Made by a program: the position numbers and the translations under genes. DNA of 64,000 nucleotides, taken from the IMG/VR virus record IMGVR_UViG_3300046507_000667, positions 124,001 to 188,000 of that record, one strand, 5' to 3'. Positions within the stretch are counted from its first letter, which is position 1. Each line of letters begins with the position of its first letter. This document shows positions 4,532-63,965 of the stretch, piece by piece. The DNA comes from a virus. The notes beneath the pieces were generated by a model. That model did not search any database and was not told the DNA's origin. It worked only from the letters and a program-made list of their open reading frames with translations.

Positions 4532-4615
4532 AATAGTCTCGCCTTCTTGTTAAAAATCTATAATTCTGTTATGTAACATGAAAATAGTCAAGAATTTTCT
4601 ATAAGGAACCTAAAC
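4532..4615. promoter_or_regulatory. Divergent intergenic region
   Basis: These 84 bases separate the leftward tape-measure-like gene from the rightward gene at 4616. They must hold both ribosome sites (AAGAAGG on the minus strand, AAGGAACC on the plus strand) and probably both promoters. AT-rich TATAAT-like strings are visible around 4558-4566, but no box matches the conserved element found elsewhere in the window. Confidence 0.35.
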
Positions 4616-5995
4616 GTGGTTACTTTAACTGATTTAAGCAAGAGAATTATTATCTCTGATAGTGTATCACAAACTACTGATACAATACTGGATTCTACTA
4701 GTCCTCCACACTTAAGACTAAATACAGACATCCTAGCACAGATTTCCACTACCCTATATGGTAAACAAGAGCTAATTGCTGAATCAATGGCTCTATCTAA
4801 GTATATGGCTCAAACTCTAAGAGAAGGGTTAGCAGATACTAACTACCATTTACAAGAAACTTTAGATGCCATTAATACCTTTAATGGGAAGACAGATATT
4901 CCATCGATTAATCTGTCTACTGTAGCTTCTCCATCAGTAATGTCAATGATGAGCTTTTTACCTACTACTGGTGTAGCTCCCGGCATTTCTGGTTATGTAA
5001 ATAATATAGTTGGATCAGCTTCTTCAGGTTTAGATAGAGCGGGTAATAGTATCATGGGAATGGCTTCTAAATTCTCACCTGATGCTTTACTTTCAAATCC
5101 ATTAGGTGCAATAGCTTCATTAGCTAAACTCTTACTTTGTCCTGAAAGAACTTTCCTTTCCGACATTACAAATGCTTTTAATAGTATTGCTTCAGGTTAC
5201 AATAATTTCAACCCTAGCAGTTTACTAAATACAGCTATGGGAGATCTATCTCAGTTCCTAAATAATTACGTACCGGGATTCTCTCCTTTAATGAGCTTCG
5301 TATCACTCCTTTCCAGATATCTAAAGACTGGAGGATCAGATATTGATTCAGCTATGTCAATGGTTGATCAGATTCTTAATGGTAATCAACTTGATCGCTC
5401 ATACTTACTGAATATTTCTCAGTTACAAGCATTAAAAGATCAGTTATCACCATCTAGCCCATATTATCAGTCTTCTACATCGAAGATTACTACTCCATTA
5501 GCCTTACCACAGGCTATAGATAGAACTAGGTGTTCAGAGCTAGCTAAAGTCATTAAACAACTCTTAGACACCTATAGAGCAGATAATAGATTTGAAGATG
5601 TACAGCTAAGAACCGACCTACTTTCTTCTATTAAGGATCCTGTACTAGCTAACAAAGTATCTAAATATATGGATGCTTCAGTTAAATGGTCACAAGATCA
5701 AAAGAAAAAAGACTTGGTAGATTCTATGGGTTATCAGAATACTACAGCCTTAAACTCAGCCCTAGCTGTATCGATGGTAAATGCTCAGACCATCAATAAT
5801 ACTAAGCAGGAACTAAAAGCTGTGAATGGTGATCCCGATAAACTATCTGTAGCTCAGGTTAACGCTAATAATAACTTACCCTACATACAGACAGTTAACA
5901 ATCAATCCATTCAAGATCTAAAATCATTCGAAGAGGGTATCGATTCAATAACTCGTACAGCTAATGTCTACAATATGAGCAAAGTATACGTTTAA
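4616..5995 (+). CDS. Unknown protein, probably virion-associated (459 aa)
   Basis: Starts at GTG 4616 with AAGGAACC about 10 nt upstream; no better ATG lies near. The product is rich in Ser, Asn, Leu and Thr, has no signal peptide, and shows alternating helical and loop segments without long hydrophobic helices. No domain recognised. It is transcribed divergently from the tape-measure-like gene and lies upstream of the prohead protease in the same direction, so a morphogenesis role is a reasonable inference only. Confidence 0.75.
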   Translation: MVTLTDLSKRIIISDSVSQTTDTILDSTSPPHLRLNTDILAQISTTLYGKQELIAESMALSKYMAQTLREGLADTNYHLQETLDAINTFNGKTDIPSINLSTVASPSVMSMMSFLPTTGVAPGISGYVNNIVGSASSGLDRAGNSIMGMASKFSPDALLSNPLGAIASLAKLLLCPERTFLSDITNAFNSIASGYNNFNPSSLLNTAMGDLSQFLNNYVPGFSPLMSFVSLLSRYLKTGGSDIDSAMSMVDQILNGNQLDRSYLLNISQLQALKDQLSPSSPYYQSSTSKITTPLALPQAIDRTRCSELAKVIKQLLDTYRADNRFEDVQLRTDLLSSIKDPVLANKVSKYMDASVKWSQDQKKKDLVDSMGYQNTTALNSALAVSMVNAQTINNTKQELKAVNGDPDKLSVAQVNANNNLPYIQTVNNQSIQDLKSFEEGIDSITRTANVYNMSKVYV

Positions 5996-6006
5996 TATTT
6001 TCACCA

Positions 6007-6016
6007 TATAAATATC
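6007..6016 (+). promoter_or_regulatory. TATAAATA box upstream of repeat copy 1
   Basis: TATAAATATC at 6007-6016 matches the T4 late promoter consensus TATAAATA. It lies 21 nt (counted from AAATATC) before repeat copy 1. A variant, TATAAAAATATC, lies at 6306-6317 at the same distance from copy 3. A T4-type late promoter is inferred from sequence alone; boxes of this kind are not evident before the other structural genes. Confidence 0.35.
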
Positions 6017-6028
6017 AAAACTACATTT

Positions 6029-6069
6029 TTAAAACCCTAGGGAGAAAAATCGTGATTTAATATTTTAAT
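6029..6069 (+). repeat. Intergenic repeat copy 1 (CCCTAGGG element)
   Basis: Core AAAACCCTAGGGAGAAAA begins at 6031, with palindrome CCCTAGGG at its centre, and is followed 29 nt after the core start by ATATTTTAAT (6060-6069). Two more copies follow at about 150-nt spacing. The stretch has no plausible gene. Confidence 0.85.
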
Positions 6070-6180
6070 AGTACACTCACTATCACAAACTCAACTCCTT
6101 CAGATTTCCACTATGAGTAAGTCTCTCATATTTTCCGTAACCTAATAATGAAATATAAGCTAGAATCGCATCTATCCAGT

Positions 6181-6220
6181 TTAAAACCCTAGGGAGAAAA
6201 TTAGGTAGATATATTTCAAT
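6181..6220 (+). repeat. Intergenic repeat copy 2
   Basis: The same AAAACCCTAGGGAGAAAA core starts at 6183 and the downstream box appears as ATATTTCAAT at 6211-6220 (offset 28). The upstream TATAAA-type box is degenerate here (TATAAGCT at 6154). Confidence 0.85.
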
Positions 6221-6329
6221 AGAGAAATTTTCTTGGGAAGGTAAGTCCTTGGGAAAACGTATAATCTGAAAGGTTGAGTAAAATATATTGTGGGTAATTT
6301 TATGCTATAAAAATATCGAATTTGATTTT

Positions 6330-6370
6330 TTAAAACCCTAGGGAGAAAAATAGGAGAATGATATTTTAAT
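6330..6370 (+). repeat. Intergenic repeat copy 3
   Basis: The core starts at 6332 and ATATTTTAAT lies at 6361-6370 (offset 29), so it matches copy 1 closely, including the upstream AAATATC. An AAATATATTGTG string occurs near 6282 and again at 6440, the latter running into the next gene's GTG start. Confidence 0.85.
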
Positions 6371-6448
6371 GGGAAATTGTATAGAATTAGTTTAATAGAG
6401 ATTTTGAATTAGAAACTTTTTACTGAAACTTCAAGGGAAAAATATATT

Positions 6449-7231: not shown

Positions 7232-7280
7232 TGATAGCTAGTGTAAAACATTGAAATAATTGTCATTTACTTTGAGGGAA

Positions 7281-7398: not shown

Positions 7399-8205
7399 AT
7401 GGAAGAGAAAGTTATTGGTAGGATTTTCCTAGAGAGTCCTACTTTAGTTGAAGAAGATCTTAGGTCTATTAAGCGTATTAGTAGCACTAAGGTTGTAATG
7501 GAAGCTGTTCTTCAAGACGTTGATACTCTTAATCGTAATAAGCGAGTGTATCCTAAAAAGGTTATTGAAGAAGCACTTAAGCATCCATTCGTAGTAGAGA
7601 AGCTTAAAACTAAGAGCCTTCTTGGTGAATCTAACCATCCACCTCCCGGTTCTTCTATCCAACGTCAAATGAACGTTGATATGAATAACGTTTCACACGT
7701 AATCAAAGAAGTTTATTGGGATCCTAAGAATCCTAAAATCCTTCTAGGTCGTGTTGAGACAGCTGGTACCCAGATTGGTAAGAACCTTGCTGGTCTTATC
7801 CTTGAGAATGGTATGCAATGCTCATTCTCTATGCGTGGTGCTGGTGACGTTGTTCAAAAGAAGACTCACGTAGAAGTAAAAAGTCCTATGCGTCTTATTA
7901 CATGGGACAATGTGCATTATCCTAGCCATCAAACAGCTTATATGCGTTCGATTATCAATGAAGCCACTACTGAAGTAGCGGTTACTACTGATAAATTGGC
8001 CGAATATATTGCAAAAGAGTCTAGCAATGTACAGACTTTACAAGAAAGTATTCTCTGTTTCGATACTTCAGCTTTCAATTACAAAATTGATGATGGTAAA
8101 GTATTGATTCAAGAAGCTGGTACTGGTCGTAACCTAGGTTTTGCTTTAATGGAAGCTAAGCTCAAGGATGAATTTGAAGACGCAATGCGTTCATTCAATT
8201 TCTAA
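7399..8205 (+). CDS. Prohead core protease (T4 gp21-type serine protease)
   Basis: The 268-residue product has the signature of phage prohead proteases that cleave the scaffold and other head proteins before DNA packaging. The motif LLGESNHPP gives the likely catalytic His80, and CSFSMRGAGD gives the likely catalytic Ser144 followed by the conserved R-G; an upstream Asp (for example D40 or D42) would complete the triad. Sequence after about residue 175 is less conserved in the family. The ATG has AAAGGAA upstream and the gene ends directly before a terminator hairpin. Confidence 0.85.
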   Translation: MEEKVIGRIFLESPTLVEEDLRSIKRISSTKVVMEAVLQDVDTLNRNKRVYPKKVIEEALKHPFVVEKLKTKSLLGESNHPPPGSSIQRQMNVDMNNVSHVIKEVYWDPKNPKILLGRVETAGTQIGKNLAGLILENGMQCSFSMRGAGDVVQKKTHVEVKSPMRLITWDNVHYPSHQTAYMRSIINEATTEVAVTTDKLAEYIAKESSNVQTLQESILCFDTSAFNYKIDDGKVLIQEAGTGRNLGFALMEAKLKDEFEDAMRSFNF

Positions 8206-36253: not shown

Positions 36254-36628
36254 TTAAGAAAGATTTTTAACAGCTTTCTTAGGCCGTAAAAAATTCACTT
36301 TTTGTTTTACTGAATGAATGACATCGATATAAAGATCGACAACATCTACTTCAGCACTGCGCATAGTACAAATAACATCTAAAGACATATCAAAAGCCTT
36401 TAGTGCTCTATCATTTGTACCCGCTACAGTATCAGTATATAAATCATAAACATTTGTAATTCTGTCATTAGTGCCACCTACAACATCTAATGAAGCGCTA
36501 TATACTCTTAGTTGTCTATCATTGGTACCAGCGATAGTATCTGCATATATATCATATATATTCATAACTCTATCATTGGTACCAGCGACAACATCTAAGC
36601 TAGCATTATACCAATTTAGGCTAGCCAT
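36254..36628 (-). CDS. 18-residue-repeat protein, long version (124 aa)
   Basis: ATG 36628 follows AAGGGTATATT. Six consecutive 18-residue repeats, four of which end in the near-identical V-A/G-G-TNDR (AGTNDR, GGTNDR), with alternating Y-D-x-Y-x-D and A-S-L-D-V beta segments, then C-terminal RPKKAVKNLS. The regular length suggests a beta-solenoid or stacked hairpins. It lies between LamG-like fibres B and C. Confidence 0.75.
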   Translation of the reverse strand: MASLNWYNASLDVVAGTNDRVMNIYDIYADTIAGTNDRQLRVYSASLDVVGGTNDRITNVYDLYTDTVAGTNDRALKAFDMSLDVICTMRSAEVDVVDLYIDVIHSVKQKVNFLRPKKAVKNLS

Positions 36629-60506: not shown

Positions 60507-61577
60507 TTACTCTAGAACATCACTTGTATCAGTGCTATTAAAGATATTGATTAGGAATTCCTTACGGAACTCTGCATCTTTGCCCATGAATCGCTTCATA
60601 GTGTCTTTCATATCTTTGCCTGGAAGTACTTGGATAAGTTGACGACGCTCAGGATCAAGAGTCGAGTTCCAAATATCTTCAGCAGAAGCTTCTCCCCATC
60701 CCTTGAATCGTGTCACAATAACAGACTTCTTGACATGATCTAGGAGGTTATTGAATACTTCAAAGTATGAGTCACCTTCGATCTGCTTGCCACGGCTTGT
60801 TGTTTCAAAGCTATAGTTTGCAATTTCAGCTAGTGCTTCATAGAGATCTGATACATCTTGTACAAATTGACCACCATCGACATTGACAATACAAACGAAA
60901 TCTTCTTGGATTGCTCCCTTATAGAATCCGATAATATTTACATTGTCGCCAGTAGTTTCAGTTACTTCGATACGATCACCAAAATCAATCTCACCACCTT
61001 CGGCATCGAAGTTTTGTACAAAGACTGATTCAAAGATACGTGGATTGATATTGTACTTCTTTGCAGCTAGTTTAAGAGCATGCAGATAGTTACGAATTTT
61101 TCCAATTACCTTTTCTTTTTCAGACTTCTTAGAAACTTCCTTTTCATCTACAGTAAATTTGAATGAACTTTCAATCTCATTAACGAGATATGCATTCAAG
61201 TCTTTCTCATTACGTAGATAAGATAGCTTGTGACCATCTTTAATTACCCGATAAAGAGGTGATACTGCAATATACAGACGACCTGCTTCAATCAATGGTG
61301 CAGTAAGTTCACCGAACATGGTTGTTGCAAGCATTTCGATGTGCTTACCATCGGAGTCTGCATCGGCAAGGATGATGATTTTGTTGAACTTGAGCTTTTC
61401 AAGATTAAAGCTACTACCAGTATCACACTTAAGGATAGTAACAATATCGTCAATTTCATCATTATTTCGCGCTTTATGCGGTTCAAGTCCGAAGACATTT
61501 TTCGGCTTTCCTTTCAGTTTATATACTGCCTGAAAACGCTTATCACGAGCATCCTTTACTGTACCGCCAGCCGAATC
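60507..61577 (-). CDS. gyrB: GyrB-like topoisomerase subunit, exon 2
   Basis: Starts at GAT 61577, completing EGDSAGG after splicing; the ATG seen at 61580 is made of intron bases. TOPRIM motif ADADSDGKH (about 30 residues after DSAGG plus spacer) supplies the metal-binding Asps, and GWGEASAEDIWNSTLDPE near the end is the GyrB tail signature that contacts GyrA. The exon adds 356 residues; the mature protein would be about 802, close to GyrB of E. coli. Confidence 0.9.
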   Translation of the reverse strand, partial: DSAGGTVKDARDKRFQAVYKLKGKPKNVFGLEPHKARNNDEIDDIVTILKCDTGSSFNLEKLKFNKIIILADADSDGKHIEMLATTMFGELTAPLIEAGRLYIAVSPLYRVIKDGHKLSYLRNEKDLNAYLVNEIESSFKFTVDEKEVSKKSEKEKVIGKIRNYLHALKLAAKKYNINPRIFESVFVQNFDAEGGEIDFGDRIEVTETTGDNVNIIGFYKGAIQEDFVCIVNVDGGQFVQDVSDLYEALAEIANYSFETTSRGKQIEGDSYFEVFNNLLDHVKKSVIVTRFKGWGEASAEDIWNSTLDPERRQLIQVLPGKDMKDTMKRFMGKDAEFRKEFLINIFNSTDTSDVLE

Positions 61578-62627
61578 CATATGTTAACCCTAGTATCGTT
61601 ATTACTAAAGTATGTATGATTTAAATTTCTAAATCAATAATATCCCGCTCATATAATTGCTTAATGATAAAAGCAGATGTCATCATTCCATGTAGAGAAG
61701 GAACTCGAATTACTTCAATTCCATGCTCTTTGCAAAGTTTAAACTTAGTTTTGTCTCTATTCATTGTCTTTGGAAATTCAGCTTCTCTTCCTTGCTTGGA
61801 AATATAATGCTGTTCACCATCACATTCAATAGCTAAGTTGTACTCTGGTAGGAAGAAATCAATCCTAAGACCAAATTCTAGCTTAAGCCAGTCAAAAGTC
61901 TTTTCTTCTTCATATACAATTTCAACTTCATCCAGTACTTCTTTAACTGCAATTGAAGTCTTTGATTTAGTTTGATTACATGGACACCTAGTACCATTAT
62001 GAAATAAATCAGGACGAGTTTTCCAATCCTTTCCACAGGTCTTATGTCTAAGTAATACATGAGTTTTGTTATTCACATAGCTACTAATTAAAGTATATTC
62101 ATTTCCTGTCAAATCTTTTAGCTTTTGACTAAATTCTTCAGCAGTATAACTCCATGATCTATGTGTAGCACACTTGGGACAATTATTCGGTTTTGGTTTA
62201 AGAAAATCATAAGGAGACGTGGTTCCCCACTCATGCCCACACTTATTGTGTTTGAGCATAATAGGATCATGATTCCGAATATACTGTCCTAGAACTGTAT
62301 ACTCTTTACCATATCGATCGCTAACTCGTTTACAAAATTCATCATGTGTAAGTTGTTTTGGCATTACAATTCTCAGTAGTAGAAACTAAGAATCTGTTAC
62401 ACAATCACCCTCTACCGATACATATCTCATGCTTTCACATGAGTTCAGATCATATCTTCATACTTAGTTTCAAGTATGTCTCCCGTTTCCCCTGCACTTG
62501 CAGAGTACGCCTTATGGCTGATCGTTGAACGTTCCTTTTTCAAGGCTTCGCTGCTGATTGTCCTCATCTTTACATGTTAGGAGTTTCCAGCAATTAGAGA
62601 GATTTAATGAGAGCAACTCGGCAGTTT
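61578..62627 (-). other. Group I intron in the gyrB-like gene (1,050 nt)
   Basis: Exon 1 ends in GGT (U before the splice site) and the intron ends in ATG with exon 2 GATTCG, so U and terminal G fit group I rules. Core elements on the minus strand: AATTGCTGGAAAC (62595-62583), AATCAGCAGC (62559-62550), P7 5' strand GTTCAACGATCA (62530-62519), P8 hairpin with AAGTAT/ATACTT, and P7 3' strand AAGATATGATC (62458-62448). The whole core lies before the endonuclease gene. Confidence 0.9.
61621..62364 (-). CDS. EDxHD-type homing endonuclease in the gyrB intron (247 aa)
   Basis: ATG 62364. Two zinc-finger-like repeats (ending in NNCPKC and TRCPC) precede a Vsr-like domain with the EDxHD motif in AIECDGEQHY at about residue 172. 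N-terminal MPKQLTHDEF and the repeats resemble the helicase-intron enzyme, which has three repeats and starts MPRQTTHKEF. It lies after the intron core, in the peripheral P9 region, and probably cuts intronless gyrB alleles. Confidence 0.85.
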   Translation of the reverse strand: MPKQLTHDEFCKRVSDRYGKEYTVLGQYIRNHDPIMLKHNKCGHEWGTTSPYDFLKPKPNNCPKCATHRSWSYTAEEFSQKLKDLTGNEYTLISSYVNNKTHVLLRHKTCGKDWKTRPDLFHNGTRCPCNQTKSKTSIAVKEVLDEVEIVYEEEKTFDWLKLEFGLRIDFFLPEYNLAIECDGEQHYISKQGREAEFPKTMNRDKTKFKLCKEHGIEVIRVPSLHGMMTSAFIIKQLYERDIIDLEI

Positions 62628-63965
62628 ACCCTCAACGAGATATAGCTCTGTACGTACACCGTCTTTTTCTTGACAATCTACGAACTTTGAGATATTGGAA
62701 AGTGACGTTACAAATGAACCACTTTCTTTCTTCACATTCTCAAGAGCACGTTTCTGTGCTAGACGAGACTTAGCTGAAAGAGCAAACTTAGTCGCAAGGA
62801 TTTTCATTTCCTTTGGACTATTATTCATCCACTCATCTAGCTTTGCATTTGTATACGACAATACATGGCCCGCTACATCAGTATTGACAAGCTTCTGTTT
62901 AGTCTGTGATGAATATTTCGGATTGAATACGAATACTGATACTACTGCTTCAAGACCAACGAATACATCTTCATTGTCAATCTTTTCTTTCGTAAGATTC
63001 TTTTCACGAACGAATGCAGTTACTTTCTGACTCAATGACCGTTTGAAACCAGTCACATGAGTACCACCTTCAGTAGTCTTAATAGTATTGGTAAATGACG
63101 TAATATTGTCACTTGCAAAACTATCATTCCAAGTTAAAGCAATTTCAATCTTAGTATCATTAATAACTTCTGAGGCAAGAGATACAGGAGCAATGATACC
63201 TTTCTTACCTACTGCTTCGGCTAGGAAGTCAGCTACACCTTCCTTGAAGTTATGAATAATCGGCTTTTCTTGATGACAGCTATGATATTCAACTGTCAAG
63301 CCAGAATTAAGTTGTGCAACTTCACGGAGGAATTTGACAATTTCTTCTTCAATAGGTAAAGTACCTTCCTCAAAGAATTGAGGATTGAATTGGAAGTTGA
63401 CACGAGTTGAAGACTTCTTATAACGCTTATCAGCTGGTAAAGTAACATTTTTCGATACCTTTACCTTCTGCTCATAACCATTATTGAAGGTAATTTCACC
63501 CTTATCAGTTCCTCGTTGTGCTTCTACATAAAAGATTGCTGAAAGAGCATTAACACATGACGCACCAACACCATTTAGACCAGTAGAATATACTGTCTTC
63601 TTTTCAAAGTTACGACCAGCATGGAGCTTGCCAAAAATCTTTGATAGGGTATTGGAACCATCATCTTGCTTATCAAATGGAACACCTCGGCCATTATCAT
63701 AGACAGAGAAGCTATAGTCATCATGCCGTGTAACAATGATAGCCGTTGCAAAACCTGCAAGAAATTCATCAACTGAGTTATTGATGATTTCTCGAATAGC
63801 TGTCAAATAACCTGCAGAGTCATTTGGACCAATATACATCTGTGGACGTACTTGGACACATTCCGGAAATGGAAGTTCTTTAATGTCCTTACCAGTATAG
63901 TCATTTGCTACTTTAGTAGCTGCTGCAGCAATAGCCGTTTTTTCTACAGACTTAGTACGAGCCAT
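62628..63965 (-). CDS. gyrB: GyrB-like topoisomerase subunit, exon 1
   Basis: ATG 63965 follows AAAGGTAGAAATTC. Encodes 446 residues with GHKL ATPase motifs: REIINNSVDEF at about 58-68, DNGRGVP at about 92-98, TGLNGVGASCVNALS at about 128-142, and the transducer domain. The exon ends with LYLVEG, cut by the intron before DSAGG; unspliced translation adds a short tail and stops. With exon 2 and the GyrA-like subunit this forms an A2B2 enzyme. Confidence 0.9.

What the first reader, a model, noticed from the sequence alone, without database searches (positions are those of the whole stretch)
5996..6448. Three CCCTAGGG-centred repeats at about 150-nt spacing in a 450-nt noncoding region
AAAACCCTAGGGAGAAAA occurs at 6031, 6183 and 6332, each followed 28-29 nt later by ATATTT[TC]AAT. 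Copies 1 and 3 are also preceded, at a fixed 21 nt, by a TATAAA(A)ATATC box. Fixed internal spacing and nearly regular period suggest a protein-binding array: iterons of a replication origin, a packaging or partition site, or three tandem T4-late-like promoters with a conserved +1 region. I do not recognise the element.
Basis: seen in the sequence. Interest (0 to 1): 0.7.

Follow-up and report, generated by a model that had tools for sequence, protein, structure and literature searches.

The report
Three repeated palindrome sites in jumbo-phage spacer
A giant bacterial virus carries three copies of one short palindromic DNA site, evenly spaced in the longest noncoding gap examined; they are probably docking sites for an unknown viral protein, are not the virus's normal promoters, and no relative of them was found elsewhere.

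Summary
The repeats are real. TTTAAAACCCTAGGGAGAAAA (21 nt) is identical in three copies, spaced 152 and 149 nt, followed at a fixed distance by ATATTT[TC]AAT. They occur nowhere else in the 249-kb record. The window is a jumbo phage related to Yersinia phage phiR1-37. The 453-nt block lies between homologues of phiR1-37 g081 and g080, which are 1 nt apart in phiR1-37. It is the longest gap in 144 kb and the only one with a long exact repeat. Identity falls to chance outside about 64 nt, so these are discrete sites, not a decayed 150-nt tandem repeat. The phage's own promoters were identified: early ATATATTAT-N6-G and late AACA-N6-TA(G), as in phage AR9. Neither is in the block; T4-late-like promoters are not supported. 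GC skew gives no origin signal. RNA folding is no stronger than in other long gaps and equal on both strands. Best explanation (moderate confidence): three operator-like sites, TTT-N4-CCCTAGGG-N4-AAA, for a dimeric phage protein, inside a late transcription unit; purpose undetermined. By-product: a late-promoter consensus for phiR1-37 (AACA-N6-TAG), which a 2017 paper says was not obtained.

The parts
5996..6448 (.). 453-nt noncoding block between the gp081-like and gp080-like genes; absent from phiR1-37 at this place
   Evidence: phiR1-37 g081 and g080 are 1 nt apart; longest gap in 144 kb; unique in the record
6028..6048 (+). core site 1, TTTAAAACCCTAGGGAGAAAA
   Evidence: identical in all three copies
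6180..6200 (+). core site 2, same 21 nt
6329..6349 (+). core site 3, same 21 nt
6060..6069 (+). companion box 1, ATATTTTAAT
   Evidence: shared at fixed spacing, 0 of 300 shuffles as good
6211..6220 (+). companion box 2, ATATTTCAAT
6361..6370 (+). companion box 3, ATATTTTAAT
6007..6016 (+). upstream box of copy 1, TATAAATATC
   Evidence: shared with copy 3 only
6306..6317 (+). upstream box of copy 3, TATAAAAATATC
4575..4586 (+). predicted late promoter AACA-N6-TA of the transcription unit that should run through the block
   Evidence: motif enriched upstream of genes
4616..5995 (+). gene homologous to phiR1-37 g081 (structural)
   Evidence: 28% identity over 318 aa
6449..7231 (+). gene homologous to phiR1-37 g080
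   Evidence: 25% identity, E 1e-5 in a single comparison, same order and strand
7247..7258 (+). predicted separate late promoter of the protease gene
7399..8205 (+). head maturation protease, homologous to phiR1-37 g079

Best explanation
The block is a cis-acting DNA array of three binding sites. Each site is a roughly 22-bp dyad, TTT-N4-CCCTAGGG-N4-AAA (the outermost pair fails at site 2), with an AT-rich companion box about 22 bp from the palindrome's edge, and is bound by an unidentified dimeric phage protein. The array lies inside a late transcription unit that starts at the AACA-N6-TA promoter at 4575 and should run through the block into the gp080-like gene. Bound protein most likely acts locally, for example by damping transcription from gp081 into gp080; a DNA-handling site peculiar to this phage is the alternative. 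Shown: exact conservation limited to the sites, uniqueness in the record, no early or late phage promoter in the block. Inferred: protein binding, the dimer, readthrough, and any purpose.
For: Core 21 nt identical in three copies while the flanks drop to chance beyond about 64 nt; differences between copies 1 and 3 avoid a 25-nt run (p 0.005). Central 8-bp palindrome, with weak further dyad symmetry at sites 1 and 3 (p about 0.01 and 0.014). Fixed companion box. Unique in the record. Longest gap, and the only one with an exact repeat over 12 nt, in 144 kb. No early or late promoter in the block. No RNA-specific signal.
Against: No binding protein is known and no binding was tested. Site 2 shows no dyad symmetry beyond the core (p 0.3-0.6). 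phiR1-37 has neither the block here nor a similar array in the 224 kb examined, so the array is not essential to this phage group. With no close relative, conservation over time could not be tested; three copies kept alike by recombination would look similar.
Confidence: 0.42

Rival explanations
1. RNA-level element: the block is transcribed as a 453-nt spacer between two genes, and the three cores act as RNA sites. They could be protein-bound loops, or hairpins whose self-complementary CCCUAGGG loops pair with each other, controlling translation or stability of the gp080 message.
For: The block probably lies inside a transcript (late promoter at 4575, none in the block, no terminator called). 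Copies 2 and 3 can fold as hairpins with the core in the loop. The whole block folds better than shuffles (z -2.8; -4.4 for 5999-6376).
Against: Both strands fold equally well. Other long gaps fold better, z -7 and -10. Single copies are not better than shuffles by a useful margin. No covariation among the three copies. No Rfam family. G-U and A-C mismatches in the inverted arms are about equal, 10 and 7.
Confidence: 0.22
2. A relic without function: three short insertions or partial duplications of one segment in a spacer that is free to drift.
For: Absent from phiR1-37, no counterpart in any collection searched, noncoding, between genes that tolerate a 1-nt gap in the relative.
Against: Identity is sharply bounded and includes a companion box at fixed spacing; a uniformly decaying duplication would not leave 21 identical nt in three copies beside flanks at chance. 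Similar spacings (152, 149) are not expected of independent insertions.
Confidence: 0.17
3. A DNA-handling site: replication origin, partition site or packaging site.
For: A unique multi-copy palindromic array in the largest noncoding gap; local GC skew swings from C-rich to G-rich within the block.
Against: Third-position skew of genes left and right of the block does not change as an origin predicts. The terminase-like match is about 52 kb away. The site lies inside a predicted transcription unit, and phiR1-37 lacks it here and shows no similar array in the 224 kb examined.
Confidence: 0.12
4. Three tandem promoters (T4-late-like, degenerate early, or variant late) driving gp080.
For: gp080 has no other recognisable promoter. 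TATAAATA at 6007 matches the T4-late box. The companion boxes read nATA-N6-T[AG], one or two letters off AACA-N6-T[AG].
Against: The best early-promoter score in the block is 2.7 bits, reached by 24% of 450-nt windows. The AATA variant of the late motif is not enriched upstream of genes (9 against 9.4 expected, while AACA-N6-TAG has 53 against 2.4). TATAAATA is not enriched. The phage encodes its own RNA polymerase; no gp55 homologue found (weak negative). The upstream box is missing from copy 2.
Confidence: 0.07

Closest known systems
Phage multi-site operator arrays (such as lambda OR/OL or mycobacteriophage stoperators; from general knowledge)
   Same: Several copies of one short site, palindromic centre, noncoding location
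   Different: Spacing of about 150 nt is much wider than in lambda operators; no recognisable promoter beside the sites; no known binding protein; unrelated sequence
AR9 / phiR1-37 early and late promoters (PMC5312081, PMC4848604)
   Same: Same phage group; AT-rich boxes near the cores; these promoters do serve the window's other genes
   Different: Neither ATATATTAT-N6-G nor AACA-N6-TA(G) is in the block
T4 late promoter (TATAAATA, gp55)
   Same: One exact box at 6007 and one near match at 6306
   Different: Box absent from copy 2 and not enriched in the genome; different transcription machinery
Iteron-type origins (such as lambda ori)
   Same: Repeated imperfect palindromes in an AT-rich region
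   Different: Only three copies, 150 nt apart; no skew signal; no initiator gene identified

Membership tests
Dimer-binding operator array | Repeated site with conservation limited to the site | tested here: met
   21 nt identical in three copies, flanks at chance beyond about 64 nt
Dimer-binding operator array | Dyad symmetry of the site | tested here: inconclusive
   8-bp palindrome in all; wider symmetry p 0.01, 0.3-0.6 and 0.014
Dimer-binding operator array | Bound by a specific protein | not testable with these tools
   needs gel shift or pull-down
AR9-type early promoter | ATATATTAT-N6-G | tested here: not met
   none in the block; best score 2.7 bits
AR9-type late promoter | AACA-N6-T[AG] | tested here: not met
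   no AACA on either strand of the block; AATA variant not enriched
T4-type late promoter | TATAAATA box at every copy | tested here: not met
   exact in copy 1 only, absent from copy 2
T4-type late promoter | gp55 late sigma factor encoded | tested here: inconclusive
   no match to phrog_234 in the record, but the search had no positive control
Iteron-type replication origin | Strand-composition change at the site | tested here: not met
   third-position skew left and right of the block runs against the prediction
Iteron-type replication origin | Replication starts there | not testable with these tools
   needs intracellular DNA depth
Structured noncoding RNA | Known family match, strand-specific folding, or covariation | tested here: not met
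   no Rfam match above gathering score; both strands fold alike; no covariation among copies
Intrinsic terminator | GC-rich hairpin followed by a T run | tested here: not met
   none called in the block

The most novel reading that the evidence does not exclude
The three cores are RNA hairpin loops with identical self-complementary CCCUAGGG sequences in one late phage transcript, pairing with each other or between molecules to build a defined RNA assembly; or they form an unknown genome-handling site peculiar to this branch of phiR1-37-like jumbo phages.
Probability: 0.07. Interest if true: 0.6.

Novelty: new member of a known kind. Interest (0 to 1): 0.32.

Why it matters
If the sites bind a phage protein, they are a unique, mutable handle on regulation or DNA handling in the AR9/phiR1-37 group of jumbo phages, where few cis elements beyond promoters are described. 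The work also gives a testable late-promoter consensus for phiR1-37 (AACA-N6-TAG), which the AR9 transcription study (PMC5312081) says was missing; that may be of wider use than the array itself.

Tried and rejected
Searches for the element elsewhere: the exact 18-mer in IMG/VR gave two GC-rich phage contigs with a single copy just before a start codon, taken as chance. A tandem pattern with 125-155 nt between cores gave viral and bacterial hits that look coding or are unrelated tandem repeats (hits L050, L052 and L053 were not read). The core plus companion gave three unrelated single hits. The block as DNA against phages gave only two 25-27-nt chance matches. Closer relatives: flanking proteins found only phiR1-37 as a syntenic relative. 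Small peptides behind the AGGGAG (Shine-Dalgarno-like) motif: the frames are 2-3 codons and not shared by copy 2. Large nested palindrome with copy 1 pairing to copy 3: the inverted-repeat score beats shuffles (101.5 against a maximum of 92.5), but much of it follows from each core being palindromic, and the folding z is not exceptional among long gaps. Origin by skew: rejected. Companion box as a variant late promoter: rejected.

Full report
Observation. The 18-mer AAAACCCTAGGGAGAAAA is at 6031, 6183 and 6332 and nowhere else in the window or the 249-kb record, even with three mismatches. The run identical in all three copies is 21 nt, TTTAAAACCCTAGGGAGAAAA. A companion, ATATTT[TC]AAT, follows at 29, 28 and 29 nt from the 18-mer start, better than any of 300 shuffles. 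Copies 1 and 3 are alike over 64 nt (78%), including a TATAAA..ATATC box ending 14 nt before the 18-mer; copy 2 lacks that box.

Where it is. The window is part of a jumbo phage whose closest described relative is Yersinia phage phiR1-37 (head maturation protease 54% identical; an SbcD-like protein 43%; RNA polymerase beta homologue 46-58%). The genes on either side of the block match phiR1-37 g081 and g080 in order and strand (28% and 25% identity). In phiR1-37 these two genes are 1 nt apart; here 453 nt lie between them. The block is the longest gap in the 144 kb examined, and its 25-nt exact repeat is twice as long as the next in any gap (12 nt); the longest within a gap in 224 kb of phiR1-37 is also 12 nt. 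No other collection searched holds the element. Records very near this genome may be left out of those searches, so this is not proof of absence.

It is site-like. In register, the three copies are 15 of 15 identical in the core, 8-9 of 15 just after it, and near chance beyond about 64 nt. Between copies 1 and 3 the 14 differences leave a 25-nt identical run (p 0.005). This is the pattern of discrete sites, not of a uniformly decaying 150-nt tandem repeat. Around the palindrome CCCTAGGG, the letters TTT and AAA add symmetry (TTT-N4-CCCTAGGG-N4-AAA, read from the sequence; the outermost pair fails at site 2). Sites 1 and 3 show weak further dyad symmetry (p about 0.01 and 0.014); site 2 does not.

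It is not a promoter array of a recognised type. The phage's promoters could be read from the sequence. ATATATTAT occurs 11 times in the window, always between genes. ATATATTAT-N6-G occurs 33 times in 144 kb, 31 of them intergenic, although gaps make up only 9% of the sequence. This matches the AR9 early promoter (AAATATATATTAT-6N-G, PMC5312081). AACA-N6-T[AG], the AR9 late promoter, is found upstream of 22 of 98 genes against 8.1 expected. Late promoters are predicted at 4575 (gp081), 4570 on the minus strand (the divergent gene, homologous to the phiR1-37 g082/g083 region) and 7247 (protease), but none is in the block on either strand. The best early score in the block is 2.7 bits. The companion box resembles AATA-N6-TA, but that variant is not enriched upstream of genes (9 against 9.4). 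TATAAATA is not enriched. A gp55 search was negative but had no positive control. By inference the block lies inside a transcript that starts near 4586 and continues into gp080; no terminator was called in the block.

It is not clearly a structured RNA. The whole block folds somewhat better than shuffles (z -2.8; -4.4 for 5999-6376), but equally on both strands, and other long gaps in the genome reach -7 and -10. Single copies fold little or no better than shuffles, the copies show no covariation, and no Rfam family matches. An RNA role remains possible because the block is probably transcribed.

It is not clearly an origin or packaging site. GC skew inside the block swings from C-rich to G-rich, but third-position skew of the genes on the two sides does not change as an origin predicts, and the terminase-like match is about 52 kb away (that family search also rang in 11 of 14 control genomes, so the location is provisional).

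Conclusion. The best-supported explanation is a DNA array of three operator-like dyad sites for an unidentified dimeric phage protein, inside a late transcription unit. The steps shown are conservation, uniqueness, location and lack of promoters; binding and purpose are inferred. Confidence is moderate (0.42). As a kind of thing it is familiar (a multi-site binding array); as a sequence it is unmatched.

By-product. The same analysis applied to phiR1-37 gives AACA-N6-T[AG] upstream of 51 of 133 genes against 9.9 expected, with spacers of 5 or 7 at background. The next base, which the pattern did not ask for, is G in 88% of the 51 sites. AACA-N6-TAG occurs 53 times in upstream regions of the two phages against 2.4 expected. 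PMC5312081 states that no late consensus was obtained for phiR1-37; the papers listed were not all read.

Noticed in passing
Yersinia phage phiR1-37, loci L006 and L074-L077 (21.8-246.0 kb), and the window's phage: AACA-N6-TAG is strongly enriched upstream of genes in both phages (53 against 2.4 expected), with an unasked-for G after TA in 88% of phiR1-37 sites: a late-promoter consensus like AR9's, which PMC5312081 says was not obtained for phiR1-37.
   Followed up: yes
window 8695, 9144, 9703, 11960, 12549, 16441, 22057, 45679, 54925, 56723, 56877 (minus strand): AR9-type early promoters, ATATATTAT usually followed after 6 nt by G, all in gaps; several have a longer shared element TTTTTTnnTGATATATTAT with upstream hairpins.
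   Followed up: partly
window 62426-62653 (minus strand): Group I intron (Rfam RF00028, 77.8 bits) beside split type II topoisomerase genes (62604-63965 and 60507-61580), with a zinc-finger-type ORF at 61621-62364 that may be a homing endonuclease.
   Followed up: no
G000:C1:102174-107530 (L064, L065): The homologue of phiR1-37 RNA polymerase beta gene g099 is in two pieces that join at query residue 922-924, with about 1.2 kb between them: intron or intervening gene.
   Followed up: no
G000:C1:101442-101832 (in L069): A strongly folding gap (z about -7 on both strands) beside the RNA polymerase beta gene; the phiR1-37 gap beside its g099 holds the small RNA misc_4 (PMC4848604), so a shared noncoding element is possible.
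   Followed up: no
G000:C1:218076-218331 (in L072): A 256-nt gap with an early promoter and very strong folding on the plus strand only (z -10.2 against -4.4): candidate structured RNA.
   Followed up: no
window 36400-36598: In-frame tandem repeat (54-nt unit, four copies) inside ORF 36254-36628.
   Followed up: no
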